DNA of 64,000 nucleotides from assembly GCF_003044565.1 (NCBI RefSeq), contig NZ_POXG01000007.1, positions 62,001-126,000 of the forward strand, given 5' to 3'. Within the stretch, counting starts at the first letter, position 1. Every line of letters starts with the position of its first letter. Shown here one piece after another: positions 3,087-14,880 of the stretch. A program made the translations under genes and the position numbers. The DNA comes from Neisseria sicca (GTDB taxonomy: Bacteria > Pseudomonadota > Gammaproteobacteria > Burkholderiales > Neisseriaceae). Below the pieces are notes generated by a model. It searched no databases and had not been told where the DNA came from. It saw only the letters and a program-made list of their open reading frames with translations.

Positions 3087-3418
3087 GTTAATTCTCCTTT
3101 GTAGATTAGATTTTTTTCAGTATCGGCTCAGCGGCTCGGTTTCCACGAAACCCGAAACGAACCGTTCAAAAAGAAACAATGGTTTCAAAACCATTTTCAG
3201 ACGACCTTTCAAGCCACTAACCCATCACGTCGCCTGAAAATCAAAATCAATAAAAACAATTGGTTAATAAATTCAATACATACAATTCGGCTGAAGCGGA
3301 GGTCTAAGTATTTTTTTATTATTTTAATATTCGGAAGGAAATACAGTGGGAGATACAGAAAATTTAAAACCCGAACCGACCGCAGAAATACGGGAAACCA
3401 AATTCGGGCGAAGAGCCG

Positions 3419-3514
3419 TCAGACCGCCGCGACTGCCCAAAAGCAGACGACGACGAATGCGGCAGGGATAGAAGACAATCTATAACAAGACGGAGAAGTT
3501 TGGTACAGATTCAT
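3419..3514 (-). CDS. possible 31-aa leader or small membrane peptide
   Basis: ATG at 3512-3514 follows AAAGGAACCCTATC, a good ribosome binding site. The predicted peptide starts MNLYQTSPSCYRLSS and ends in a hydrophobic run (FVVVCFWAVAAV) before TGA. It is read in the same direction as prpB, whose start lies about 330 bp further on. Family unknown. It could be a small membrane peptide, a leader peptide or a chance ORF. Confidence 0.3.
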   Translation of the reverse strand: MNLYQTSPSCYRLSSIPAAFVVVCFWAVAAV

Positions 3515-3935
3515 GATAGGGTTCCTTTGTAGTGCGATGTAGTTTTTATTGGTAAGGGCAAATTTAAAAAATAATTTTCAGGCTGTCAAACACTTTTTCT
3601 CAAATATTTTTAAAAATTTCAATCATTAATGAACAATACTTCAGAAACAAAACCCAAAACCCTCACCTTGAAACACCTCAAATCCTTACCCGACAAAGCC
3701 TTAACCACTTCCAATCAATCAGAACGATTTTAAACAATACTTCTCAAAATTAAATATAATTAATTCATTTTTCAGGAATTTTTGTTTAACCGCAAAAAAC
3801 AGCATCCAAACCGCCCAAACCACCCGATTTTGCACCCACGCCCTTTTCAGACGACCAAAATTTAAATAACATCATGATTTAACAATAAAAATAATCTAAT
3901 TTTAAAATGTAGTCGCGTGTAGTTTTAGATATAAA

Positions 3936-3977
3936 AAGGTCGTCTGAAATCGTAACCCTATGATTTCAGACGACCTT
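3936..3977. terminator. DUS inverted-repeat hairpin
   Basis: A 16-bp stem (AAGGTCGTCTGAAATC and complement) with a 10-nt loop. It lies in a region without an adjacent gene end, so it may be an uptake site rather than a working terminator. Confidence 0.45.
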
Positions 3978-3987
3978 CACACCCAGC

Positions 3988-4082
3988 CGTAGCATGGGCT
4001 TCGCCCACGAAAAAACAATACCATGATTATCGCCCGACTCGAAAACCAACCATTCGACTGCGTGGGCAAAGCCCACGCTACG
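3988..4082. repeat. 95-bp hairpin-ended repeat, copy A
   Basis: The left end CGTAGCATGGGCTTCGCCCA and right end TGGGCAAAGCCCACGCTACG are inverted copies of each other, and each is itself a hairpin (GTGGGC/GCCCAC). About 50 bp of unrelated AT-rich sequence lies between. Two further copies of nearly the same length occur at 18637-18731 and 21734-21826. Confidence 0.7.
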
Positions 4083-4209
4083 ATCCGTAGTAGGCATCGA
4101 ACCGCCCTACCCGCCGCCGCGTTGAATTTGCCCATCAAGGAAAGTTTTGTATTTAATGGGAAAGTTTTTTGCTTATCTCAGATTCACGTTCATCCACCAT
4201 AAAAGTTAA

Positions 4210-4256
4210 AAAAGGTCGTCTGAAACCCATAACCACATGATTTCAGACGACCTTTT
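4210..4256 (-). terminator. DUS hairpin terminator of mgtE
   Basis: AAAAGGTCGTCTGAAA (4210-4225) pairs with 4241-4256, giving a 16-bp stem. Read on the minus strand it follows the mgtE stop by about 30 bp and ends in a T-rich stretch. Another single DUS (4274-4285) overlaps the mgtE stop codon. Confidence 0.75.
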
Positions 4257-4284
4257 CTCTTTTCCATCCGCTTTTCAGACGACC

Positions 4285-5739
4285 TTACAGTAAGAATATC
4301 GTTGCCAGTCCCAAGAAGATCAGAAAACCGCCGGAATCCGTTACCGCCGTAATCAGCACCGAGCTGCCCAACGCAGGGTCGCGACCGTATTTTTCCATGA
4401 TGACGGGGATGAGGACGCCGACCGAGGCGGCGAGCAAAAGGTTCAGCGTCATCGCGGCGATCATCACCAAACCGATGCCGATGCTGCCGTACAGCAGCCA
4501 TGACACCACGCCCATGACCGTTCCCCAGATGATGCCGTTGACCAAAGCGACGCCGACTTCTTTTTTCAACAACCGTCCCGCCTGCATCCCTGTCAACTGC
4601 CCCATCGCCATCGCGCGGACAATCATGGTGATGGTTTGGTTGCCGGAATTGCCGCCGATGCCGGCGACGATGGGCATCAGCGCGGCGAGTGCGACGATTT
4701 TCTCGATACTGCCTTCAAAAGCGCCGATAACGCGGCTGGCAAGAAAGGCGGTGCAGAGGTTGACGGCAAGCCACATCCAGCGGTTTTTCACCGAATCCCA
4801 CACAGGCGCAAACAAATCTTCCTCTTCCTGCAAACCCGCCATGTTCAACATATCCGCTTCCGATTCTTCGCGGATAACGTCCACCATCTCGTCGATGGTA
4901 ATCCTGCCGATGAGCTTTTTGTTTTCATCGACCACGGGCGCGGTGACCAAGTCATAACGTTCGAACGCCTGCGCCGCCTCTTCCACGTCGTCTTCGGGGC
5001 GGAAGCGCACGACTTCGGTCGCCATCACGTCTGCCACCAAGTCTTCGGGATCGGCAACCAAAAGTTTGCGGATGGGCAGCACGCCTTGCAGGATGTCGTT
5101 TTCATCGACCACAAAAATCTTGTCGGTATGGTCGGGCAGGCTCTCGAAGCGGCGCAGGTAACGCAGCACCACTTCGCAGGCGACGTCGGCGCGAATGCTG
5201 ACCAGTTCGAAGTCCATAATCGCACCGACTTGGTTGTCTTCATACGACATCGCCGCCTTGACTTGGGCGCGCTCTTCCTCGTCGCGCGTCTGCAAGGCTT
5301 CATAGACCACTTGGTGCGGTAAATCGCCCGCCAGCTCCGCCAGCTCGTCCGCGTCCAAGTCATCGACCGCCGCCAACAGCTCGTCTTTGTCCATCGACTC
5401 GATCAGCGTTTCACGCACCGCGTCGGAGACTTCCAGCAACACTTCGCCGTCGTCTTCAGGCGTGACCAACAGCCAGACGATATTACGCTCGCGCGGCGGC
5501 AACGATTCCAACACCGCCGCCACGTCGGCAGGGTGCAGCTCGTTCAAAAGGACGGTCAGCTCGCTAAATTTGTCACGCAACGCCTCGTCCTCAATCGGCA
5601 CGCCTTCTTCAATCTGCGGGAAGGCGGGCGAAAGAATTTCGCACAACGCGTGGATACGGTCGAAATCGGCGGAAACGCGCTCTACGTCGCTTTCGATAAC
5701 GTCGTTTTCAAGGTTCGGAGGGGTTTGTTCGATGCTCAT
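4285..5739 (-). CDS. mgtE: magnesium transporter MgtE
   Basis: A 484-residue inner-membrane Mg2+ channel. Order of parts: acidic N-terminal MgtE_N helical domain (about 50-160), paired CBS domains (about 170-290) that sense cytosolic Mg2+, then five membrane helices from about residue 325. The selectivity-pore motif GGNSGNQ lies at 362-368 and a conserved Asp sits in the last helices (TAVTDSGG). The start ATG follows GGGCGGAGCATTT. It is a single-gene unit with its own DUS terminator. The length is slightly above the family norm of about 450 because of the N-terminus. Confidence 0.95.
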   Translation of the reverse strand: MSIEQTPPNLENDVIESDVERVSADFDRIHALCEILSPAFPQIEEGVPIEDEALRDKFSELTVLLNELHPADVAAVLESLPPRERNIVWLLVTPEDDGEVLLEVSDAVRETLIESMDKDELLAAVDDLDADELAELAGDLPHQVVYEALQTRDEEERAQVKAAMSYEDNQVGAIMDFELVSIRADVACEVVLRYLRRFESLPDHTDKIFVVDENDILQGVLPIRKLLVADPEDLVADVMATEVVRFRPEDDVEEAAQAFERYDLVTAPVVDENKKLIGRITIDEMVDVIREESEADMLNMAGLQEEEDLFAPVWDSVKNRWMWLAVNLCTAFLASRVIGAFEGSIEKIVALAALMPIVAGIGGNSGNQTITMIVRAMAMGQLTGMQAGRLLKKEVGVALVNGIIWGTVMGVVSWLLYGSIGIGLVMIAAMTLNLLLAASVGVLIPVIMEKYGRDPALGSSVLITAVTDSGGFLIFLGLATIFLL

Positions 5740-6069
5740 AAATGCTCCGCCCGCCGGATGCGGGAGGGCATTTCGGCGGGATGGTTATCGTGTATTTCGG
5801 GATAAACCGGAAGGGAAGTTCAGTAAAAACGAACTGGGAAGATCCATAATAAAAGCCTGCTGATTCAGGCGTCGTGTTGGAAACGGAGCGTATTTTACCG
5901 CGTTTCGGAGCGGTTTACTATTTTTAACTGAAAAGGTCGTCTGAAATTTATAAATTTCAGACGACCTTGGTACATATTGGTTTTTAACTCAACCTATGCT
6001 TACTGAACTAAACACAAAATATAACCATTCAGCATAATTAAAGTAAAGTTGATATGTTGACTGATAAAT
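5740..6069. other. 330-bp gap between mgtE and the T6SS cargo block
   Basis: It holds the mgtE promoter region (next to 5740), a perfect 36-nt DUS palindrome (5933-5968) and AT-rich sequence after it. The drop in GC content starts about here and marks the right-hand border (in map order the left) of the accessory block. Confidence 0.6.
5933..5968. terminator. perfect DUS palindrome, likely terminator of the T6SS cargo operon
   Basis: AAGGTCGTCTGAAATTTA is followed directly by its reverse complement, giving an 18-bp perfect dyad. On the minus strand it lies about 100 bp past the last gene of the VgrG operon and is followed by TTTTC. Confidence 0.65.
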
Positions 6070-7188
6070 TTATGTAGAAATTATATTTAAATTCATTTCA
6101 TATTCAGAGTCACTTGAATAGATAACAATAACTATATCATTTTTGGAATGTAAGTTTTTAGTCGTCAAGGCAATTAAAAGCCAATTCATATTTAGGGGCG
6201 AACTCCCCAAATACTTCTCTACCGATTTTTTTATATTATTTGTTTTCAACGAAAACAAATAAGGTAATAGTTCGTATTTTTCTAAAGTCAAAAAACTATA
6301 GCTATCAATCCAATATTGTATAGTACGATTTTCAACATCGCTATAACGAAGAAATTTTTCTAGATTTGAAGATACTTCTGCTTTATTGGTAGAATCAATG
6401 TTAAGCCCTCTACTAATATAATTTTTGATATGGATTTTTTTGTCCTCAACCGATTTTTCATTTGAAAAGATAAACCATATAATATTCTCAGTAAAATGAC
6501 CTTCTGCATTCGAAGAATTATTAATGGCAGGTGAAATAAGCACATGCAAGCCATCTGCCATATCTTCCATCCAGACATCAATAATATTGCCATTATTTTC
6601 TTGAACCCACAAAAGATTATTTTTGATGATGTTTTGAAATAAGTTAGCTGTTTTTTTTAAATAATCGAAACAATCTTTCTTATATTGATAATTATCACTA
6701 TCAATATAAAACCGAATATTGGTTAGCAAAGTTCCCTGCAATAGTTCATCCAATGACTCTAAACATTCCCATATTGCCCGCTTAAAAGTATCTTCAGGTA
6801 AGTAAAACACCTCATTATGAAATGTTCCCCCAGTACCATTCAGTATTCCATCTATTGAAATTTCTTGTGGTAAATAAATTCCATTCCTCAATAATGCAAT
6901 TTTTTTATTTGCCCATTGTTTCCATCTAGATTCAATATGCTTTTTTTCTTCTGCCCATGCTTCTTTTTGATATTGTTTATGTATTCTTATAGAAAGAAAG
7001 AAAATACCAACAATTAGCAAAGGTAGGCACAAATATAAGGCTTTCTGTATCAATGTAGAATCTTCTGTAAACCATAACAATATGGCTACTAGAATATATA
7101 ACATTGTTAAAGCTACCAAACAATACCATTTATATATAGGTCTGAAAACCTCTTCTGCTTCAGGAATATCGGGAATATTCCATTTCAT
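6070..7188 (-). CDS. unknown two-TM protein, last gene of VgrG-lipase cassette
   Basis: A 372-residue AT-rich gene whose family I do not recognise with confidence. Two membrane helices are clear (about 22-41 and 49-67), separated by a short acidic loop (TEDSTLIQ). A basic/acidic helix (KQYQKEAWAEEKKHIESRWK) and a roughly 300-residue soluble domain follow, which would be cytoplasmic if the N-terminus is inside. It starts 71 bp after the lipase gene with a good ribosome binding site (AAAGGATATATC). Its place directly after a Tle-type lipase is where immunity proteins or lipase adaptors (for example the Tla3/DUF2875 type, which also have N-terminal TM pairs) usually sit. Either role is inference. 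Confidence 0.75.
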   Translation of the reverse strand: MKWNIPDIPEAEEVFRPIYKWYCLVALTMLYILVAILLWFTEDSTLIQKALYLCLPLLIVGIFFLSIRIHKQYQKEAWAEEKKHIESRWKQWANKKIALLRNGIYLPQEISIDGILNGTGGTFHNEVFYLPEDTFKRAIWECLESLDELLQGTLLTNIRFYIDSDNYQYKKDCFDYLKKTANLFQNIIKNNLLWVQENNGNIIDVWMEDMADGLHVLISPAINNSSNAEGHFTENIIWFIFSNEKSVEDKKIHIKNYISRGLNIDSTNKAEVSSNLEKFLRYSDVENRTIQYWIDSYSFLTLEKYELLPYLFSLKTNNIKKSVEKYLGSSPLNMNWLLIALTTKNLHSKNDIVIVIYSSDSEYEMNLNIIST

Positions 7189-7259
7189 GATATATCCTTT
7201 CTCTATCTATCAATACTGTCTGAAAATGATTTTGGATAGTTTGACACTACACGAAGATT

Positions 7260-8723
7260 TTAACCTTTGTGTATTATTCTATATGGCAATCCATTTTTTG
7301 TTCTCAGCTCATATCCGGTTTCATCTTTTGCAGACCAATGGATATACTTGTAACGGATCTTCCGTACCTGTTGCGGTGAGTAATACTTACTCAGTTCAAA
7401 ATTGTACCTTTTTGCCCAGGAATCTTGGGATGCCTTCTGTATATCATAAGGCAATTTGTTAAGCAGTTCGATAATTTCCGGAAAGTGGGAAGCCTCTCTA
7501 TGTTTTATCCGATTCCTGTTAAATACAATAACCTTATCACTGCAGTGCGTTTCCACAATCAAGCGCATAATCTTGAATGCAACGCGGGCATAATCATTAG
7601 GTATTATATTCTTACGTATTGCTTCCATCGTTTCTGGAGTTTTTTGCGTCCCCCCAAAATCACCTTCATAAGTCTTACTTTTTACCCAATGAATATCATC
7701 TTCTTTAAAGAAACCTTGCTCTTGAAACCATTTTTTCATACCTAGAAAATTTTTCTTAACCGGAAACGGTTTTTTTTGCGCTTCGGATTGATAGCTTCCA
7801 CCAACATCTGCATGTGCACCACTAATAATAACTTCCATTCCAAAACCATTACTAATGGCACTGTCTATATTTGTTAGAGAGAAATATTGTCGGTATTCAT
7901 CTGCAGCTGTCAAATGAAAAACTTTACTTGCATAATTACGTCCAAAATTGAGATGTAATTCCTTTACATCATCATCAAATGCACTTGTCGGTTCTGGTAT
8001 AGTATAAACTGCCGAAAATGACGATACAGTATCAAATAAGCCAACAAAATTGACGATAATTCTTTCTCTTTTAAGATTCCAACCTTTAAACAGTTGAGGT
8101 TCCGTTTTTACTCTATGTAAAAAATGCCTGGCAGCTGCCGCTCCTCTGCTGAAACCGAATATGTTCAGTATAAGGATCGTCGGGATCCGATCACCTAAAC
8201 TTTGCTTGACCATAGTCTGAATCTTCTCAAAGGATTGAAAAACACGGGCTTCTATACCGGTAGGACCACTACCGAAAGCAAATCCCTGTTGCGAATCTGT
8301 ATGATATTCTCTGTCCTTCAGCGGAAAACCTTTACGTGCACGATCTTTGTTCTCCCTATCCCAATGATTAATTTGATCTGCACCGGTACCGATCCCTTCG
8401 ATATAAGCCCAGCCTATATTAGCTTTTTGTCCTCTTGCTTGATACAGATACGACACATTGGAATGATCATTGAAATAGCTTTCATATTCACTGGCTGTTT
8501 CTTTGCCCTTATACATTTGAGGATTTTTCTTCCTATTCTCAATGTTGTATAAATTATTTTTTGTACCGTCAAAAAATACGTTTATCGTAAAAGTATCAAC
8601 ATAGACCTCCTTTTGAGACCCAGTTGTCCCATTGGTTGTCGCTTTACCATGCACGTTACTTCCACGTTGAGTGGCATTTCCCTTCTTTGTGACTATCCTA
8701 TTAATTAATCTACTTCTACTCAT
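7260..8723 (-). CDS. T6SS phospholipase effector, Tle1-like (DUF2235)
   Basis: A 487-residue alpha/beta-hydrolase of the DUF2235/Tle1 family. These T6SS toxins hydrolyse phospholipids of rival cells. The family opening FFDGT is at 51-54, the nucleophile elbow GFSRG at 190-194 (Ser192), the acid in GLFDTVSS (Asp231), and the catalytic His304 in SGAHADVGGSY. The triad is intact. It has no signal peptide, as expected for a cargo carried by VgrG. The gene starts 10 bp after the DUF2931-like gene with TAAGGAAATATC before ATG. It is the third gene after vgrG and lies in low-GC DNA unlike the flanking housekeeping genes. Confidence 0.88.
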   Translation of the reverse strand: MSRSRLINRIVTKKGNATQRGSNVHGKATTNGTTGSQKEVYVDTFTINVFFDGTKNNLYNIENRKKNPQMYKGKETASEYESYFNDHSNVSYLYQARGQKANIGWAYIEGIGTGADQINHWDRENKDRARKGFPLKDREYHTDSQQGFAFGSGPTGIEARVFQSFEKIQTMVKQSLGDRIPTILILNIFGFSRGAAAARHFLHRVKTEPQLFKGWNLKRERIIVNFVGLFDTVSSFSAVYTIPEPTSAFDDDVKELHLNFGRNYASKVFHLTAADEYRQYFSLTNIDSAISNGFGMEVIISGAHADVGGSYQSEAQKKPFPVKKNFLGMKKWFQEQGFFKEDDIHWVKSKTYEGDFGGTQKTPETMEAIRKNIIPNDYARVAFKIMRLIVETHCSDKVIVFNRNRIKHREASHFPEIIELLNKLPYDIQKASQDSWAKRYNFELSKYYSPQQVRKIRYKYIHWSAKDETGYELRTKNGLPYRIIHKG

Positions 8724-8732
8724 GATATTTCC

Positions 8733-10022
8733 TTAATAATAAGCGATCTTGCTAATTTCGTAACGTTGATGGATTTCAGCATCTGGCAATACAAATTTTT
8801 GCCCATTGTTTTCAAGATACGCCTCTATCAACTCGAAATGATCGTCAAGTTTCAATTTCAATGTAGCAAACTGATTTATCGGAGGTGTACTGATATTATG
8901 CGCTCGAGTCCTCTCAGGAAACGCCTGCTGAAATGTCCTGTACAACCTATTTAATCGGATATCATCATATATTATTTTATAATCATTCTGTTCTCGTTCT
9001 TCAGTCTTAAATGGATGCAATCTGATGCCCCACCGATTACCCGTTTCTTTGTCTATTAACCATATCTTGATGTAAGTTGGCATCGCCTTCATTGCCTTCT
9101 TCTCTTCTTCTACCCTCTCCTTACCGATAGCCGTCCAGCGCTCCGTGTTAGCGAATTCCATATAGTATTCGCCGTTCCATTCCCCTCCATCGACTTCAAC
9201 CTCCAAGTTCCATGGATATTTCGTTTGCATCTGTTTGTACCACTCCGCACTCACCTTTTTGGGTCCATCTATATAAGTGTGATAGAAATTGGGGTGTTCT
9301 TTACGGACTCTGTCTAAATATTCTTTCCGTTCTTCCTGATTGTGAAAACCTGCGACTTTGTAATACCATATTTCATTAAAGTGATGTTTGGCAGCCTCTT
9401 CCACAGAAGGCATGATTTCTTTTGCCTGCCAGGACATCAATTCCTTGCGAATAAATACATTGGTAAGGTTCAGCGTCACCCAGCCGTCAGGAGCAACAGC
9501 CAATTCAAAATCATTGGGAGATTCATATTGCGGAGTTTCTGTGTCCTCTACTGCATTATTGAATACCCTGTAACTTTTTGCCATCATAGGACGTATCTTT
9601 TCGGTTGGAAGGGCTTCATCCAACTGATAAAATTTATTTTCAAACTGAGAGGAATAGGTAAAAGTCAGCCTTTCGGGAAGTAAATCAAACTCTGCCGTTC
9701 TTCCCAAATACCCTCCTCTTCCCCATATAGAACCCGTACCAAAGAAATTTCGCAATACTGTTCCGTTCTGCAAATAAAAATCAGAACTGTACTTATTTGA
9801 TACATCTATTGCTTCTGCATCCAATGTTAAATATGAAGAATTTTCCGGTGTGGCGTTAACCAATATTGCATCTGCCATCGTAATTCCCCAAACCATGCCT
9901 TTTCCCTGTTCGGGATTGCCATTGCCTTCAATCATTCTATTTAATCCTATGTTTGCCAATACAATACTCAGATAGCCCGCTGCTACCATGCCTAACAGTA
10001 AATTTGTTTTCCTGTGTTTCAT
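8733..10022 (-). CDS. DUF2931-like protein, candidate immunity or accessory factor
   Basis: 429 residues. The N-terminus has a positively charged MKHRKTN stretch and a hydrophobic helix (8-27), so it is probably membrane-anchored or exported; there is no lipobox Cys. The segment LPERLTFTYSSQFENKFYQL resembles the core of DUF2931 proteins found in T6SS effector loci. The rest contains many aromatic and charged residues (HFNEIWYYKVAGF). The ATG overlaps a meningococcal-dialect DUS (10022-10033), whose AGG serves as the ribosome binding site. It lies between a small TM gene and the lipase. A periplasm-facing immunity role is plausible but not shown; the family call is tentative. Confidence 0.7.
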   Translation of the reverse strand: MKHRKTNLLLGMVAAGYLSIVLANIGLNRMIEGNGNPEQGKGMVWGITMADAILVNATPENSSYLTLDAEAIDVSNKYSSDFYLQNGTVLRNFFGTGSIWGRGGYLGRTAEFDLLPERLTFTYSSQFENKFYQLDEALPTEKIRPMMAKSYRVFNNAVEDTETPQYESPNDFELAVAPDGWVTLNLTNVFIRKELMSWQAKEIMPSVEEAAKHHFNEIWYYKVAGFHNQEERKEYLDRVRKEHPNFYHTYIDGPKKVSAEWYKQMQTKYPWNLEVEVDGGEWNGEYYMEFANTERWTAIGKERVEEEKKAMKAMPTYIKIWLIDKETGNRWGIRLHPFKTEEREQNDYKIIYDDIRLNRLYRTFQQAFPERTRAHNISTPPINQFATLKLKLDDHFELIEAYLENNGQKFVLPDAEIHQRYEISKIAYY

Positions 10023-10033
10023 TCAGACGGCCT
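10022..10033 (-). other. AG-dialect DUS overlapping a start codon
   Basis: On the minus strand this reads AGGCCGTCTGAA and runs into ATG. It is the dialect of meningococcus and relatives, not the AGGTCGTCTGAA that dominates this window, and it also supplies the Shine-Dalgarno AGG for the DUF2931-like gene. Confidence 0.8.
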
Positions 10034-10043
10034 TTTTACTATC

Positions 10044-10253
10044 TTATTGATTCCAATAAAGATACGAATTAATGATATCAATCCAGTATCCGTAAGTTAC
10101 CCAGCCATTGAGCAGAATGAAAACAACTGCACAATATTTCCAATGACGGTTTTGATACATTCTAATGATACAGTAGGCATTAACAACCAGAAAAAAAATG
10201 TATCTGCCAATCTCCTCCCACAATATCTGAAACGTTAATACCAAATATCCCAT
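10044..10253 (-). CDS. small two-TM protein (69 aa) between vgrG and effector genes
   Basis: A short AT-rich gene of unknown family with two hydrophobic helices (about YIFFLVVNAYCII and YCAVVFILLNGWV) joined by a basic MYQNRHWK turn, and an aromatic C-terminus. The chosen ATG (10251-10253) is preceded by AGGGATATTGGAT; a TTG two codons upstream is an alternative. It lies 20 bp after vgrG and 21 bp before the DUF2931-like gene, so it is almost certainly cotranscribed. It may be a membrane immunity partner, but nothing in the sequence proves this. Confidence 0.6.
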   Translation of the reverse strand: MGYLVLTFQILWEEIGRYIFFLVVNAYCIIRMYQNRHWKYCAVVFILLNGWVTYGYWIDIINSYLYWNQ

Positions 10254-10273
10254 ATCCAATATCCCTATATCAT

Positions 10274-12757
10274 TTAAATTTCTTTAGATTCTTCATCATC
10301 AGATTCAAAAACCATCCCCTCCAGTTTACTTCCTGAATATACCCTGAATGCCTCCCCTTTTTCATTGGTTACACCTCGATAAATTTCACCGTTTGCCATA
10401 GTAATTTTATAAGCAAAATTAGGGATAGGCATACCTGTACGTTCATCTTTTAATACAAACATTTCGTCATTTCCTGGATTAGGGATCGCCAAAGGATAGT
10501 CCTCGGAATGATTGGCTGTCACATGAAATGGAGCTCTAAAACGCAACATTTTTGGACCACCAATTTCAACCTCTCCATTTTTAATTCGAATGTAAGCTCC
10601 CTGACTAACTAACAAAATTCCTTTATCTGATGCAATCGTAATTTCACCTTCTGTACTGGTTAAGGCCGAATTTTTTCGTGCATTAATCTGCAATTCACCA
10701 TTTTGTGCCTGAATAGCCACTTTACCTTTATTCGCTTGTATTTTCATTCCACTATTTTGGGCAAACAGATTAAGACTATCTGCAGCATGAACAGTAAAAT
10801 TTTTTCCTGAAGTTATGCCTGTATTTTGTCCACTAACTAAATTAATAAACTCTTTTGCTGTATGAATTTGGCTTTTCGAAGTTGCACTAGCAATACCATT
10901 TGGAGCGGATTGGATAATCCCTGCTTGTTTTAATTCTTTAAGGCTATTTTCCAGTTGCTCCCTCTGTATCTTAATTTCTGCCAATTCATTTTGTGCACTT
11001 TGCGCAGCTTTATCCAAGCTTTGAGCTAATCCTAACATTTCCTCTAGAACACTTATAGCCTCATGCATATTTAATACTTTATCAGATGGACTCTTACCGT
11101 CTGCACTGATTAATATACCATTGCCAGCCCTTACCGCACCCCAGCCGTCGGTTCTGAGTTCAAAGCCTTCGCCGTTCTCTCCGCGTTTTGTCCTACCGCT
11201 GTCGACGATGTGGCCGAGGTTGAGTTGGGATTTTTGGTAGTCGGTGGCGAGTTTGATGTGTTCCTGACCTTTTTGGTCTTCCATCCTGAGTTTGTTGTTC
11301 GCCCAGGTACGGATGACGTTCCTTGTGTTCCAATCGGCAGGGATGTGGTCGGGATGGGCGCTGTCGTGCATGACGCCGGAGATATACGGGCGATCGGGGT
11401 TACCTTGGACGAAGGACAGCATGACTTCGGTGCCTTCGTGCAGGGGGAAGTGGATGCCGTATTCGGGACCGGCATAGGGTTTGGCGAGTCGGACGGGACG
11501 GCTTTCTCCGCCGGGGCTCCATTCGTCCAAATCAAACGGCAGTTTGACGCGGTAGCGTCCCATGTCGTCGATGTAGGCGTAGGTGCAGTTCTCCGCCGCG
11601 GTCACCCGTGCGGGCAGTGTGCCGGCGATATGGGGACGTGGGGTGGTGCGTTCGGGACGGAAGGCGAGTTGGGCGGGTATGGCGGTAAAGGTGTGGCTGT
11701 AGGCGCTATCGCGGCTGCCGCTGTGTTCCATACTGAGTACCAGCCAGCCGTCGGGGGCTTCGGGGAAGGCGGTATCGGTTTGGAACACTTTCATCGGTGC
11801 CATCGAAACGACGTTGCCGCTGCCGTTGGCGACGGTTTGGCGGCAGAGGACGGCTTCGTTCAACAGGGTCGTCTGAACTTTGGCTTCATCGGTTGTTTTA
11901 GGGTGAAGCCCCCAGTTTTGCTGTTTGCCCAATAAGACGGTATTGTCGGCAGATTCTTCGGATTGTTTGTTGTCGGTTTCTGCGAAGAGGTCGGTATCGG
12001 CGGTGCGGTAGTTGTAGTCGGCACTGCGTATGCCTTCGACGATGGGGTTGTGGCGGATGCTTAAGTTGAACAGTGCTTCGGTACCGACGCTTTCCAATCC
12101 GGCATGGGGACGGTAGGAAACGGGTAGGCTTTGGTCGCGGAAGTAGTGTTCGGGACTGTCGCCGAAGACGACCACATCGCCATGTTGTTCATTCTGCTCG
12201 AAGGCATACCAAATGCCTTCTTCCTCACACAGACGGTTGATAAAGGCGAAGTCGCTTTCGAGATACTGGGTCACATACTCGCGTACGGTGTAACTGCGGC
12301 TTTTTTGGAAACGGTAATCCACACCGGAGAAGCCGTGGTGTTTGAAGACGGCGGCAACGATATCGGGGACGGTTTGGTTTTGAAACAGTCGGGAAGATTG
12401 GAAATGTTTTAAAGCCGCGAAACGCGGCTCTAAAACAAAGCGGTAAACGGTTTCATCCTTGGATACCGACAGCTTCTCACACGAAGTCACGATGCCCTGC
12501 CATTGTTTCGCCGGAGGCTCGTCTGAACCGGCTGCGAAGGCGGCGGCGACTTCGGACAATACGGCTTCCTGCGGACGGATTTCAAACGCTGCGCGTTGGT
12601 TGAGGTAGGAAGACAACGGCAGGGAGGAATCGGTGGAGGTGGCGGTGATTTCGACGCGGTAGGCGGTGTTGGCGGCTTCGGAGGCGGTGAAGGATTTGAC
12701 GGAGAGGGACGGGGAGAAACGGGCGAAGGTGAGGTGGTAGGATTGGCGGGCAGTCAT
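10274..12757 (-). CDS. vgrG: type VI secretion spike protein VgrG with transthyretin-like tail
   Basis: 827 residues. Residues 1 to about 540 form the VgrG core: the gp27-like base (with DFAFINRLCEEEGIWYAFEQ at about 170-190) and the gp5-like OB-fold (GPEYGIHFPLHEGTEVMLSF). A helical coiled-coil segment follows (564-613), then a DUF2345-type beta-prism extension (about 615-745). The C-terminal domain (764-827, with YKITMANGEIYRGVTNEKGE) resembles the transthyretin-like domains that dock Tle1 lipases. The core is GC-rich, while everything after about 11,125 (residue 544) is AT-rich like the downstream cargo genes, so the gene is a mosaic. The Shine-Dalgarno is weak. No T6SS sheath or baseplate genes are in the window, so this is an orphan vgrG. 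Confidence 0.93.
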   Translation of the reverse strand: MTARQSYHLTFARFSPSLSVKSFTASEAANTAYRVEITATSTDSSLPLSSYLNQRAAFEIRPQEAVLSEVAAAFAAGSDEPPAKQWQGIVTSCEKLSVSKDETVYRFVLEPRFAALKHFQSSRLFQNQTVPDIVAAVFKHHGFSGVDYRFQKSRSYTVREYVTQYLESDFAFINRLCEEEGIWYAFEQNEQHGDVVVFGDSPEHYFRDQSLPVSYRPHAGLESVGTEALFNLSIRHNPIVEGIRSADYNYRTADTDLFAETDNKQSEESADNTVLLGKQQNWGLHPKTTDEAKVQTTLLNEAVLCRQTVANGSGNVVSMAPMKVFQTDTAFPEAPDGWLVLSMEHSGSRDSAYSHTFTAIPAQLAFRPERTTPRPHIAGTLPARVTAAENCTYAYIDDMGRYRVKLPFDLDEWSPGGESRPVRLAKPYAGPEYGIHFPLHEGTEVMLSFVQGNPDRPYISGVMHDSAHPDHIPADWNTRNVIRTWANNKLRMEDQKGQEHIKLATDYQKSQLNLGHIVDSGRTKRGENGEGFELRTDGWGAVRAGNGILISADGKSPSDKVLNMHEAISVLEEMLGLAQSLDKAAQSAQNELAEIKIQREQLENSLKELKQAGIIQSAPNGIASATSKSQIHTAKEFINLVSGQNTGITSGKNFTVHAADSLNLFAQNSGMKIQANKGKVAIQAQNGELQINARKNSALTSTEGEITIASDKGILLVSQGAYIRIKNGEVEIGGPKMLRFRAPFHVTANHSEDYPLAIPNPGNDEMFVLKDERTGMPIPNFAYKITMANGEIYRGVTNEKGEAFRVYSGSKLEGMVFESDDEESKEI

Positions 12758-12948: not shown

Positions 12949-13311
12949 CTAATCATTTTCTACATAAATATGGCAACCCAACCATTTTTTTAATGATATG
13001 AAATACAAATTATTCAATTCATGTGCAAAGGGAGTGCCATATTCACTGACCATAACAGTATATTCCTCTAACAAGGAAAAGGTATCATCGGATATTGAAA
13101 GAATAAGCTGACCGTCAGTTACATCAAACTCATCTTCATCATTTGAATTCAGAAAAATTCTAAAGGAAAGGTTATATTCTTTCTTGCGCTTTGTTAAAAA
13201 AACTTGCCCCTCCCAATAATTCCCTTCTCTTTGTAATGAAGACATTATTTCCTTTAAATCATTTATTTTTACATGCCAATTTATACTGTCACGTCTGATT
13301 TCTAAATTCAT
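12949..13311 (-). CDS. unknown 120-aa protein upstream of vgrG
   Basis: An AT-rich gene of unrecognised family. The chosen start ATG (13309-13311) has GAGAGGAAAT in front, better than an in-frame ATG 19 codons upstream. The protein is acidic and predicted mostly beta, with no signal peptide or membrane helix (MNLEIRRDSINWHVKINDL...). It contains SNDEDEFDVTDGQLILSIS and ends with a hydrophobic and aromatic YFISLKKWLGCHIYVEND. It follows the DUF3304-like gene and precedes vgrG. Small beta-rich acidic proteins in such places are often immunity proteins; that is inference. Confidence 0.65.
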   Translation of the reverse strand: MNLEIRRDSINWHVKINDLKEIMSSLQREGNYWEGQVFLTKRKKEYNLSFRIFLNSNDEDEFDVTDGQLILSISDDTFSLLEEYTVMVSEYGTPFAHELNNLYFISLKKWLGCHIYVEND

Positions 13312-13467
13312 ATTTCCTCTCGACAACAAATATTCGGACTGGCGACATAAGTCATTCCGACCACCCAATAACCCGTAAGAAATAGCTGATAGGGCACGCT
13401 ATTTATATAAAACATTTTTTGTGAAAATCATTATTCAGCTTTGCTCATCATTTCGCCCCATCTTAAT

Positions 13468-14007
13468 TTAAAAATCCGGATTTTCCTTACGGTATGCTTC
13501 GTTATCTTTTTTCAAAGTTTCATGAAACTGATGCATCGGATTTTCCGGTCTCTGCCTACCGTAACTTGAAATTAATACACGCACTGAATAATCCGGCAAA
13601 ATGTGAAACTGCAATAATCCGTTGTCTTCATCGGTAAATTTATCTACCTTAGCATTAACGTTACGCTCTTCAAATTCATTTTTATCCGTGCTTATCATCA
13701 AAGTCAGAGGCAGCGTCATCCCCTCATGCCAGCGCGGGATGGAAACGCAACATTGTCCACCTCCTTCCTCTGCATAAGGACTGATTCCACCTAAATGCCA
13801 TGTTTGCCCGACCTGTTGATAAAAAATCGTTACACCTCGGTCGGAATAGTTGTTGAGCATAAATGAAAACGAGCGTTCCTGATCGGTATCCACAAAAAAA
13901 TCATCCTTTTGATTGAAGATTTCTTTTATTGAAGAAGCATAGATTGATAGAACCGGAAGAGCGGCGACTAAAACGACCAAGCCCAAAACCCTAAATATTT
14001 TTTTCAT
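13468..14007 (-). CDS. DUF3304-like exported protein near vgrG
   Basis: 179 residues starting MKKIFRVLGLVVLVAALPVL, an apparent signal peptide or anchor (1-25). The stretch GGGQCCVSIPRWHEGMTLPL (about residues 83-102) resembles the GG-CCVxLPxxWxPGMT core of DUF3304 proteins common in T6SS effector loci. This ATG has AAAAAGGAAAAAA before it. A longer reading from 14061 is unlikely because it would begin at the predicted transcription start. A 10-bp perfect dyad (14024-14044) lies in the 5' leader. Function unknown; exported immunity or accessory roles are possible. Confidence 0.75.
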   Translation of the reverse strand: MKKIFRVLGLVVLVAALPVLSIYASSIKEIFNQKDDFFVDTDQERSFSFMLNNYSDRGVTIFYQQVGQTWHLGGISPYAEEGGGQCCVSIPRWHEGMTLPLTLMISTDKNEFEERNVNAKVDKFTDEDNGLLQFHILPDYSVRVLISSYGRQRPENPMHQFHETLKKDNEAYRKENPDF

Positions 14008-14023
14008 TTTTTTTCCTTTTTGT

Positions 14024-14044
14024 CTGCCATAAGGCTTATGGCAG
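14024..14044. promoter_or_regulatory. perfect 10-bp dyad in leader of DUF3304-like gene
   Basis: CTGCCATAAG and its exact complement CTTATGGCAG are separated by one base. The site lies between the predicted transcription start and the ribosome binding site, so it could be an operator or an RNA hairpin close to the Shine-Dalgarno. Confidence 0.5.
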
Positions 14045-14137
14045 CGCATTTTAAATGACAACGTGGTTCGTATAGTAGCTTGAACGATGTAATGGGTAAA
14101 GCGAATGGGATAACTGGCTAATGGGTCGTCTGAATGG
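14040..14137 (-). repeat. diverged duplicated upstream region, copy 2
   Basis: The partner of 12757-12856. Its 3' end (CGCTGCCATAAG) aligns with the vgrG start region (AACGCCATGACTG), so it may be what remains of another vgrG start. Confidence 0.65.
14072..14100 (-). promoter_or_regulatory. sigma-70-like promoter of DUF3304-like gene
   Basis: TTTACC (14095-14100), a 17-bp spacer and TACTAT (14072-14077). It is the paralogue of the vgrG promoter and places transcription start near 14065. Confidence 0.6.
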
Positions 14138-14207
14138 TGTTTTGTTGGCGTTGTTTCTTTCAGACGAGCTTTGATGTGCGTCTCTCCTGACGTTATTGAT
14201 TTAAAAT

Positions 14208-14313: not shown

Positions 14314-14880
14314 TTATTTGGGGTTTTTCTCGATGAGGGCGACAAGTTGGTCGATATAGCCTTGAACGAAGCTTCTCGCTGATTCGATGAGTTTGCCGTT
14401 GTCGTCAAATAAGGTGGGGGAGTTGCCGAGGAAGACTTCGGGCTGTCCGGTCAGCGGCATATTGAAGTAGGACAAGGCAAGGCGCAGGTTTTTTTGCGAG
14501 CTGTAACCGCCCATTTTGCCGACGGAATGGCTGATGATGCCTGCGGGCGTGTTTTTCCATGCGACGTCGGCGTTGGGTTTGGAGCCGATGTCTACCGCGT
14601 TTTTCAGGCAGGCGGGGACGGTGCGGTTGTTTTCGGAGGTAACGAACAATACGCCGTCGGAGGCTTTGATGGTTTCGCGGAAGGCGGTGTAGCTTTCGGG
14701 CGTGGGGAAGTCGGTTTCGGCGGGGTCGTCGTAGTCGAAATTGTAGAGCGGCAAGCCGCCGATTTCGACGATTTGGGCTTCGTAGCCTTCGGGGAACATG
14801 GGGATGACGTTTTGCGCCACTTTGCGGGCGAACGAGCCTTTACGCAGGCTGCCTACTAAAATGCTGACTTTTTTTGCCAT
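14314..14880 (-). CDS. NADPH-dependent FMN reductase (YieF/ChrR-like)
   Basis: A 188-residue flavodoxin-fold oxidoreductase. The FMN phosphate loop GSLRKGSFARK follows the first strand (residues 10-20). The motif PLYNFDYDDP and the flavin-contacting segment TSENNRTVPACLKNAVD are typical of the NAD(P)H:quinone/chromate reductase family, where the usual text is PEYNxSxPGxLKNAID. Here it is altered to ENNRTVPACLKN. It probably reduces quinones or other electrophiles in the cytoplasm. The ATG is preceded by AGGAGAAAATTC. Single gene with a DUS terminator. Confidence 0.88.
   Translation of the reverse strand: MAKKVSILVGSLRKGSFARKVAQNVIPMFPEGYEAQIVEIGGLPLYNFDYDDPAETDFPTPESYTAFRETIKASDGVLFVTSENNRTVPACLKNAVDIGSKPNADVAWKNTPAGIISHSVGKMGGYSSQKNLRLALSYFNMPLTGQPEVFLGNSPTLFDDNGKLIESARSFVQGYIDQLVALIEKNPK

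What the first reader, a model, noticed from the sequence alone, without database searches (positions are those of the whole stretch)
11100..11160. Composition break inside vgrG near residue 544
Upstream (N-terminal) sequence is GC-rich like the housekeeping genome, while downstream sequence is AT-rich like the cargo genes. The change coincides with the end of the conserved VgrG core. This is what would be expected if the tail and its effector were swapped as one cassette by recombination in the conserved core.
Basis: seen in the sequence. Interest (0 to 1): 0.55.

Follow-up and report, generated by a model that had tools for sequence, protein, structure and literature searches.

The report
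Swapped toxin-carrier tail of VgrG
A gene for the tip of a bacterial molecular spear changes abruptly from native-looking to foreign-looking DNA where its toxin-carrying tail begins, and comparison with related bacteria indicates that tail, toxin and probable antidote are exchanged together at this point, a known kind of modular arms exchange mapped here at one Neisseria site.

Summary
In vgrG (10274-12757, minus strand) third-position GC falls from 0.69 to 0.23 at codon 545 (support 538-547). Of 25 long ORFs examined, the next strongest changepoint scores 7.6 against 81. Codon usage of codons 1-544 matches housekeeping genes; the tail matches its cargo genes.

The same site beside mgtE was found in two related genomes (G026 by one flank only). 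Both share the core sequence seen there, lose similarity near codons 542-554, and regain it at, or 40 bases before, an inverted repeat of uptake sequences near 5968. Cargo differs: Tle1 lipase here, Rhs nuclease and phospholipase D there. The same tail, Tle1 and DUF2931 recur in two other genomes of the genus. AU tests reject a common history of core and tail, though the tail tree is weak.

Refinements: the break lies inside T6SS_Vgr, before DUF2345; a second junction exists near codon 745; homogenisation of the core among copies probably also shapes boundaries. Swapped vgrG 3' ends and GC breaks inside vgrG are published for other genera: a new member of a known kind.

The parts
10274..12757 (-). 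vgrG, 827 aa, mosaic T6SS spike protein
   Evidence: ORF; Phage_GPD, Phage_base_V, T6SS_Vgr, DUF2345; TIGR01646/TIGR03361 above cut-off
11123..12757 (-). vgrG core, codons 1-545: GC-rich, host-like codon usage; codons 1-520 are 92-98% identical in DNA to the four aligned G000/G019 copies (57-88% to the eleven aligned G045, G006 and G027 copies)
11123..11164 (-). junction J1 (about codons 532-545) in the conserved FELRTDGWGAVRAG block
   Evidence: GC3 changepoint 538-547; identity changepoints 540, 540 and 553 against L061, L067 and L069; codon-by-codon comparison
10274..11122 (-). swapped VgrG tail (codons 546-827), AT-rich
   Evidence: best match among 83 family genomes is the Tle1-linked tail of G045 at 66% aa; PDB 6sjl chain A, E 2.2e-42
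10523..10951 (-). DUF2345 (residues 603-745), AT-rich type
   Evidence: lacks the DUS at codon 600 that is present in 10 of 16 aligned copies
10274..10522 (-). C-terminal extension (residues 746-827), possibly the TTR-like Tle1-binding part
   Evidence: weak match to 6h56_A (E 0.00038) and 6sjl_A 780-819 (E 0.0021); two tails without Tle1, L074 and L067, stop matching 6sjl_A at 770-773
8733..10022 (-). DUF2931 protein, 429 aa, hydrophobic N-terminus; probable Tle1 immunity protein
   Evidence: PF11153; a DUF2931 gene lies beside Tle1 in all four Tle1 cassettes examined, one of them just under the Pfam cut-off
7260..8723 (-). Tle1-like phospholipase effector, 487 aa, GFSRG at residues 190-194
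   Evidence: PF09994 62.3 bits against cut-off 27; PDB 6sjl chain D, E 5.9e-18; motif
6070..7188 (-). 372-aa protein with N-terminal hydrophobic segments, role unknown, inside the cassette
   Evidence: ORF; no Pfam family over cut-off; weak 22% relative in the G006 Tle1 cassette
5934..5968 (.). DUS inverted repeat; right-hand boundary: homology with G019 resumes at 5968, with G026 at 6007, and in G007 and G022, which lack this vgrG, mgtE-side homology ends at 5946
4285..5739 (-). mgtE-like flank gene, site marker
   Evidence: 99% in G019 and G026 beside vgrG; gene name recalled, not assigned by a call
14314..14880 (-). NAD(P)H-dependent FMN reductase-like flank gene on the other side
   Evidence: 98% in G019 at the same site; gene name recalled, not assigned by a call
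12949..14061 (-). two AT-rich genes upstream of vgrG (139 aa unknown; 197 aa DUF3304, weakly Tli1a-like), possible orphan immunity genes
   Evidence: DUF3304 over its cut-off; Tli1a model 37 bits, below its cut-off of 110; 83-84% homologs at the G019 site
11868..11877 (+). DUS embedded in the vgrG core (codon 294) in the host's own dialect
10022..10031 (-). only DUS of the two forms searched in the cassette, in the GCC form that is rare in this genome

Best explanation
The break is the left junction of an exchangeable cassette: VgrG tail (end of T6SS_Vgr, DUF2345 and a TTR-like extension), DUF2931 immunity candidate, Tle1 lipase and a 372-aa gene (about 5969-11122). Homologous recombination between DNA sharing the conserved vgrG core on one side and the DUS repeat/mgtE flank on the other replaced whatever cargo stood here. 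Because the tail probably holds the Tle1-binding surface, swapping tail and effector together keeps the spike and its load matched. Shown: the junction, different cargo at the same site in relatives, the tail-effector linkage, the core-tail conflict. Inferred: uptake by natural transformation, the direction of exchange, that the tail binds Tle1 and that DUF2931 is its immunity protein.
For: Composition and codon usage switch at codon 545. Same site in G019: core 94.4% to window 11100, then no match until 5968, then 94.5%; outer flank 91.9%. G026 beside mgtE: 97% at codons 533-542, 33% at 553-562, homology again from 6007. Cargo there: Rhs protein with WHH nuclease end; PLD protein with a DUF6396 protein. 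Of 23 non-self tail matches in the genus, the three with Tle1 next door are the three best; 1 in 1771 if the 23 were independent, which sister copies are not. AU tests: W with L070 rejected for the core, p 3.6e-43; G000 with G019 rejected for the tail, p 3.0e-48 (groups picked after the identity table, before the trees). Tail and effector hit two chains of one entry, 6sjl A and D. PMC10715212 (passages) says Tle1 binds the TTR extension of EAEC VgrG.
Against: The tail tree is weak (2 of 13 inner branches starred; W+L070 only 87/78; one very long branch); the four Tle1-linked tails are not a clade in it, though that is not rejected (p-AU 0.34). The closest known tail is only 66% identical and its Tle1 49%, so no recent donor was found. 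AT-rich cargo is common in several species, so composition alone does not prove recent import. Effector and immunity order differs between W and the other three Tle1 cassettes. Tails without Tle1 match 6sjl_A with equal or higher total score (150-161 bits against 149); only the reach into the TTR region differs. The TTR match alone is weak (E 0.0021) and the AlphaFold model of that segment was poor (pLDDT 53). G026's other flank is on another contig and stops matching at 14202. The contig is a draft; other vgrG copies of this genome are cut at contig ends.
Confidence: 0.82

Rival explanations
1. The boundary marks mainly where gene conversion among the vgrG copies of one genome stops: the tail and cargo stay put at each site, while the shared core is repeatedly overwritten by sister copies. 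(Not exclusive of the best explanation; both may act.)
For: The core tree groups copies by genome for G045, G019, G006 and G027. In eight G045 pairs compared the longest exact run is 356-1835 nt although the copies lie at different sites; L070 is 88-92% identical to the five others in codons 1-100 but 95-100% in codons 101-480. G019 copies L067 and L068 share exact runs of 860 and 760 nt.
Against: The two G000 copies do not pair in the core tree. At the mgtE site the core (94.4%) is about as diverged between G000 and G019 as the flanks (91.9-94.5%, 87% for the two upstream genes), and W and L061 have no exact run over 156 nt, so no recent conversion is needed here. It does not explain three different cargoes beside mgtE. 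Recent duplication of whole copies could also give the exact runs.
Confidence: 0.25
2. The composition break is intrinsic: DUF2345 and effector genes are AT-rich through relaxed selection or function, without exchange at this point.
For: AT-rich C-terminal extensions and cargo occur in many copies and several species.
Against: G045 copies L071, L072, L074, L075 and L076 have GC3 0.55-0.88 across DUF2345. The Tle1 gene of G006 is 53% GC against 38% here. DNA identity to sister copies collapses at the same place.
Confidence: 0.04
3. Assembly chimera joining the core of one vgrG copy to the tail of another.
For: Other vgrG copies of G000 are cut at contig ends at codons 64 and 691.
Against: Both flanks and the core position are reproduced at this site in the single-contig genome G019; a core joined to a Tle1 tail is reproduced in the single-contig genome G045.
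Confidence: 0.04

Closest known systems
vgrG recombination hot spot in Agrobacterium (PMC8546570, passages read)
   Same: Recombination inside the conserved vgrG region, with the C-terminal part and all downstream genes replaced together
   Different: Agrobacterium loci were sorted by tap adaptor genes; here no adaptor gene was recognised in the cassette; breakpoints there were predicted with GARD on translated sequences
Pantoea/Erwinia vgrG islands (PMC3235180, passages read)
   Same: Sharp GC drop inside vgrG (63.7% to 46.6%) continuing into the effector island
   Different: No junction was mapped in the passages read, and the word recombination does not occur in the main text held
P. aeruginosa vgrG6 3' end plus effector plus immunity replacement (PMC11751169, passages read)
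   Same: The vgrG 3' end, effector and immunity gene are replaced as one block
   Different: Different effectors (pyocin-like) and population-scale data
V. cholerae T6SS clusters (PMC5361080, passages read)
   Same: Effector-immunity modules exchanged by homologous recombination; displaced immunity genes kept
   Different: Breakpoints there were spread widely rather than at set sites; old immunity genes lie downstream, here the candidates lie upstream of vgrG
Neisseria T6SS-A VgrG C-termini and linked effectors (PMC10210955, abstract, two sections and passages read)
   Same: Same VgrG type; specific C-termini travel with specific downstream genes; DUS noted in vgrG
   Different: Treats the part after DUF2345 as the variable one and the main text holds no 'breakpoint'; here DUF2345 itself is part of the swapped piece and different cargo at one site is shown
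EAEC VgrG1-Tle1 complex (PDB 6sjl; that this entry is this complex is recalled; PMC10715212, passages read)
   Same: Tail matches chain A into its TTR region, effector matches chain D
   Different: Binding not tested here; the Neisseria Tle1 match covers residues 40-313 of 487

Membership tests
Modular vgrG effector cassette (3' end plus effector-immunity exchange) | Conserved N-terminal core shared between loci with different C-terminal parts | tested here: met
Modular vgrG effector cassette (3' end plus effector-immunity exchange) | Different cargo at the same chromosomal site in relatives | tested here: met
   2 of 2 copies beside mgtE (G019 by both flanks, G026 by one) differ from the window
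Modular vgrG effector cassette (3' end plus effector-immunity exchange) | Tail type travels with effector type | tested here: met
   the 3 other Tle1 matches in the genus follow the 3 best tail matches of 23; 2 Tle1 matches in another genus (G056) have no such tail at E 1e-10
Modular vgrG effector cassette (3' end plus effector-immunity exchange) | Conflict between core and tail trees | tested here: met
   AU tests, with the weak support of the tail tree noted
Tle1 phospholipase effector | Tle1-like catalytic domain with GxSxG nucleophile motif | tested here: met
   PF09994 62.3 bits against cut-off 27; GFSRG
Tle1 phospholipase effector | Phospholipase activity and T6SS-dependent killing | not testable with these tools
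   no experiment
VgrG1-Tle1 type loading | TTR-like C-terminal domain on VgrG | tested here: inconclusive
   alone E 0.0021 to 6sjl_A; within the whole tail the match runs to chain residue 819; no Pfam family for the segment; fold model poor
VgrG1-Tle1 type loading | Direct binding of the VgrG tail to Tle1 | not testable with these tools
   needs pull-down or two-hybrid
Neisseria T6SS-A VgrG | vgrG with DUF2345 and a variable extension, in several copies, in a genome with T6SS genes | tested here: met
   two VipB-family (TssC) matches and one PAAR match in G000; type A versus B was not assigned by a core-gene tree

The most novel reading that the evidence does not exclude
The Neisseria vgrG core acts as a self-maintaining landing pad for transformation-borne weapon cassettes. 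It is kept uniform within a genome by gene conversion and carries an embedded uptake sequence at codon 294 written in the genome's own DUS dialect, so that the encoded residue 297 differs with the dialect (Thr in G000 and G019 copies, Ala in G045 copies). Incoming DNA from killed neighbours is then both taken up and anchored through the core, and resolves at one of two junctions (about codons 530-560 or 743-751), importing tail, effector and immunity together. The cassette here would come from a GCC-dialect species.
Probability: 0.25. Interest if true: 0.6.

Novelty: new member of a known kind. Interest (0 to 1): 0.38.

Why it matters
It maps, codon by codon and at one chromosomal site, how commensal Neisseria may re-arm their T6SS: the machine-fitting half of the spike stays native while the probable loading surface, toxin and probable antidote come as one piece. 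The two junctions give a testable map of which VgrG parts must stay together, and the DUS pattern makes the role of natural transformation in weapon exchange measurable from sequence.

Tried and rejected
Intrinsic AT-richness and assembly chimera were considered and rejected (see rivals). An empty site was looked for in G007 (no vgrG match) and G022 (one distant 27% match): mgtE and the reductase gene lie far apart there, so no simple empty site was found. The AlphaFold model of the C-terminal extension was too poor to search by fold, and no fold search was run. Rfam, PHROGs, PADLOC, plasmid, phage, viral-contig and E. coli collections were not searched.

Rows dropped: L077 (in-frame stop) and L073 (same length, changepoint and match score as L072) were left out of alignments and trees; partial copies L056, L057, L080 and contig-end fragments were not in the trees; proteins were cut at 960 aa before alignment. 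The script crashed at L077, so per-gene GC3 changepoints exist for 12 of 18 copies; segment GC3 for 16 copies is, where G006 copies show little or no drop. In one search minus-strand positions of the degenerate DUS pattern are shifted by some bases; positions used here come from exact patterns.

Full report
Observation. The vgrG gene occupies 12757-10274 on the minus strand. Third-position GC is 0.69 up to codon 545 and 0.23 after; the best changepoint is codon 545 (support 538-547), with a log-likelihood gain of 81.5 against at most 6.8 in 500 shuffles. Among 25 non-overlapping ORFs of at least 250 aa in the window the next highest value is 7.6. Codon preferences of the core correlate 0.88 with six housekeeping ORFs and 0.09 with three cargo ORFs; those of the tail correlate -0.02 and 0.87.

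Where the break lies in the protein. Domain models put TIGR01646 at 19-507, T6SS_Vgr at 484-585 and DUF2345 at 603-745. The break is therefore inside T6SS_Vgr, in a block that is nearly invariant across the 16 aligned copies (GEGFELRTDGWGAVRAG), not at a domain end. The swapped piece includes DUF2345, unlike the variable part described by Calder and Snyder, which follows DUF2345 (PMC10210955, section read).

Related copies. In the own genome one other long copy (contig 4, codons 1-744 matched) and several fragments were found; contigs 10 and 11 end inside vgrG at codon 64, contigs 3 and 1 at codon 691. In the genus, 14 of 46 genomes have a match, including distant ~25% VgrGs; close full or partial copies are in G000, G006, G019, G026, G027 and G045. 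DNA identity of the window copy to L061 (own genome) and L067-L069 (G019) is 92-98% in codons 1-520 and 44-51% in codons 561-602. Pairwise changepoints are 540, 540 and 553 against L061, L067 and L069. Of the 17 pairs, ten fall at 532-561, five at 743-751, one at 697, and one pair with the same tail (L079/L079b) shows only a slight shift at 346. Per-gene GC3 changepoints fall at 545-559 in 4 of 12 copies (W, L061, L069, L070), at 744-760 in 7 and at 701 in 1 (6 of 18 copies not computed). So there are two main junctions.

Same site, different cargo. Window 14138-12840 and 12873-11100 match the G019 locus L069 at 87% and 94.4%; nothing matches at E 1e-8 from 11100 to 5968; 5968-3931 matches at 94.5%. 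The flank beyond, with the reductase gene, matches at 91.9% (L081). In G026 the copy on contig 142 is 97% identical in codons 533-542 and 33% in codons 553-562, and homology resumes at 6007. Its contig begins at codon 493, so the core upstream was not seen. The reductase flank of G026 is on contig 75, where homology stops at window 14202, so the same-site assignment for G026 rests on the mgtE side. Cargo: window DUF2931, Tle1 and a 372-aa gene; G019 a 1532-aa Rhs protein with WHH nuclease end; G026 a 647-aa PLD protein and a DUF6396 protein. Homology resumes at the DUS inverted repeat (5936-5968) for G019 and 39 bases before it for G026; in G007 and G022 the mgtE-side homology ends at 5946, inside the repeat. 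As a contrast, the VgrG-Rhs gene of G000 contig 4 and its counterpart in G026 contig 165 are 94.8% identical over 4,095 columns from codon 443 onward, straight through the junction.

The same cassette elsewhere. The best tail match in 83 family genomes is in G045 (66% aa), next another G045 locus and one in G006 (50% each); these three tails are followed by Tle1-like genes, and a DUF2931 gene stands next to Tle1 in all four cassettes (L071 slightly below the Pfam cut-off). Two further Tle1 matches, in a different genus (G056), have no such tail. L070 lies about 245 kb from mgtE in G045, so the cassette is not tied to one site. Its junction is at codon 559-561, not 545, which suggests separate events. 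In L071 a Tle1-linked extension is joined at the second junction (codon 746). Gene order differs: DUF2931 before Tle1 in the window, after it in L070, L071 and L078.

Trees. For codons 1-520 of 16 copies, G045, G019, G006 and G027 copies each form one group; the two G000 copies do not pair. Forcing W with L070 is rejected (p-AU 3.6e-43). For the tail protein, forcing G000 with G019 is rejected (p-AU 3.0e-48); W pairs with L070 (87/78). Only 2 of 13 inner branches of the tail tree are starred and L069 is a very long branch; the four Tle1-linked tails as one clade are neither recovered nor rejected (p-AU 0.34). The groups tested were picked after the identity table.

Core homogenisation. Eight G045 pairs have longest exact runs of 356-1,835 nt although the copies lie at different sites; L070 is 88-92% identical to the five others in codons 1-100 and 95-100% in codons 101-480. 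This points to gene conversion or recent exchange among copies; recent duplication is not excluded. In the window copy the longest exact run with L061 is 156 nt, so no recent event is needed here.

Uptake sequences. In the stretches examined, G000, G019 and G026 use GTCGTCTGAA (177, 78 and 49 copies, against 4, 1 and 2 of GCCGTCTGAA); G045, G006 and G027 use GCCGTCTGAA (177, 32, 54 against 0, 1, 3). The 5,154-base cassette holds none of the former (7.2 expected from the density outside; Poisson 0.0008) and one of the latter, overlapping the DUF2931 start. Against this, an AT-rich control region at 35-43 kb is also poor (1-2 per 5.15 kb), so composition explains part of the lack, and a single site is weak evidence for origin. 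The core carries a DUS at codon 294 in the genome's own dialect in all 5 aligned G000/G019 copies and all 6 aligned G045 copies; G006 copies (3 of 3) and one of two G027 copies lack it. A DUS at codon 600 is present in 10 of 16 aligned copies and absent from W, L061, L069, L070, L079 and L079b.

Mechanism. Tail and effector match chains A and D of one solved entry, 6sjl; that this is the EAEC VgrG1-Tle1 complex is recalled. The two Tle1-linked tails tested match chain A up to residue 819-821, the two other tails tested only up to 770-773, although the latter score as high overall (160.6 and 150.0 bits against 148.7 for the window). PMC10715212 (passages) states that Tle1 of EAEC binds the TTR extension of VgrG, the form without TTR ending at 778. 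The inference is that the swapped tail is the loading surface for the linked Tle1. The genome has two VipB-family (TssC) matches and one PAAR match, so a machine is likely present. Function is not shown by any search.

What is known. GC breaks inside vgrG (PMC3235180), a recombination hot spot within vgrG that exchanges the C-terminal part with all downstream genes (PMC8546570), replacement of a vgrG 3' end with effector and immunity genes (PMC11751169), and mosaic T6SS clusters with widely spread breakpoints and displaced effectors (PMC5361080) are published. For Neisseria, tail-effector linkage and DUS in vgrG are published (PMC10210955; its main text holds no 'breakpoint' or 'gene conversion'). 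Hence a new member of a known kind. The genus is taken from the close L009 record. Gene names mgtE and FMN reductase, the name of the GTC form of DUS, and a likely N. mucosa/sicca-like host are from recall.

Noticed in passing
L061, oriented with vgrG 3119-8962 (G000 contig 4); also L056, L079: VgrG in one reading frame with a full Rhs protein (1947 aa; Rhs domains found) in G000; a 1487-aa partial counterpart in G026 is 94.8% identical; two 1999-2000-aa VgrGs in G006 are similarly long but their ends were not tested. One paper search for VgrG-Rhs wording listed five papers.
   Followed up: partly
vgrG codon 294 (window 11868-11877) and codon 600 in other copies: Embedded uptake sequences at fixed codons written in each genome's own DUS dialect, with a Thr/Ala difference following the dialect at codon 297.
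   Followed up: partly
window 12949-14061: Two AT-rich genes upstream of vgrG, conserved at the G019 site (83-84%), may be orphan immunity genes left from earlier cassettes; G019 has about 1.8 kb more there with two further ORFs of 125 and 180 aa.
   Followed up: partly
L062 10356-10679 (G000 contig 8), L063, L064, L065, L066: A truncated vgrG start (codons 1-70) and contigs ending inside vgrG, a sign of further collapsed copies in the draft genome.
   Followed up: no
L077 (G045): A vgrG copy with an in-frame TAA stop.
   Followed up: no
L078 (G006), 6836-10534 oriented with vgrG: Three tandem genes of near-identical start downstream of one Tle1, a probable immunity gene array (the first of the three is DUF2931, the others were not tested).
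   Followed up: no
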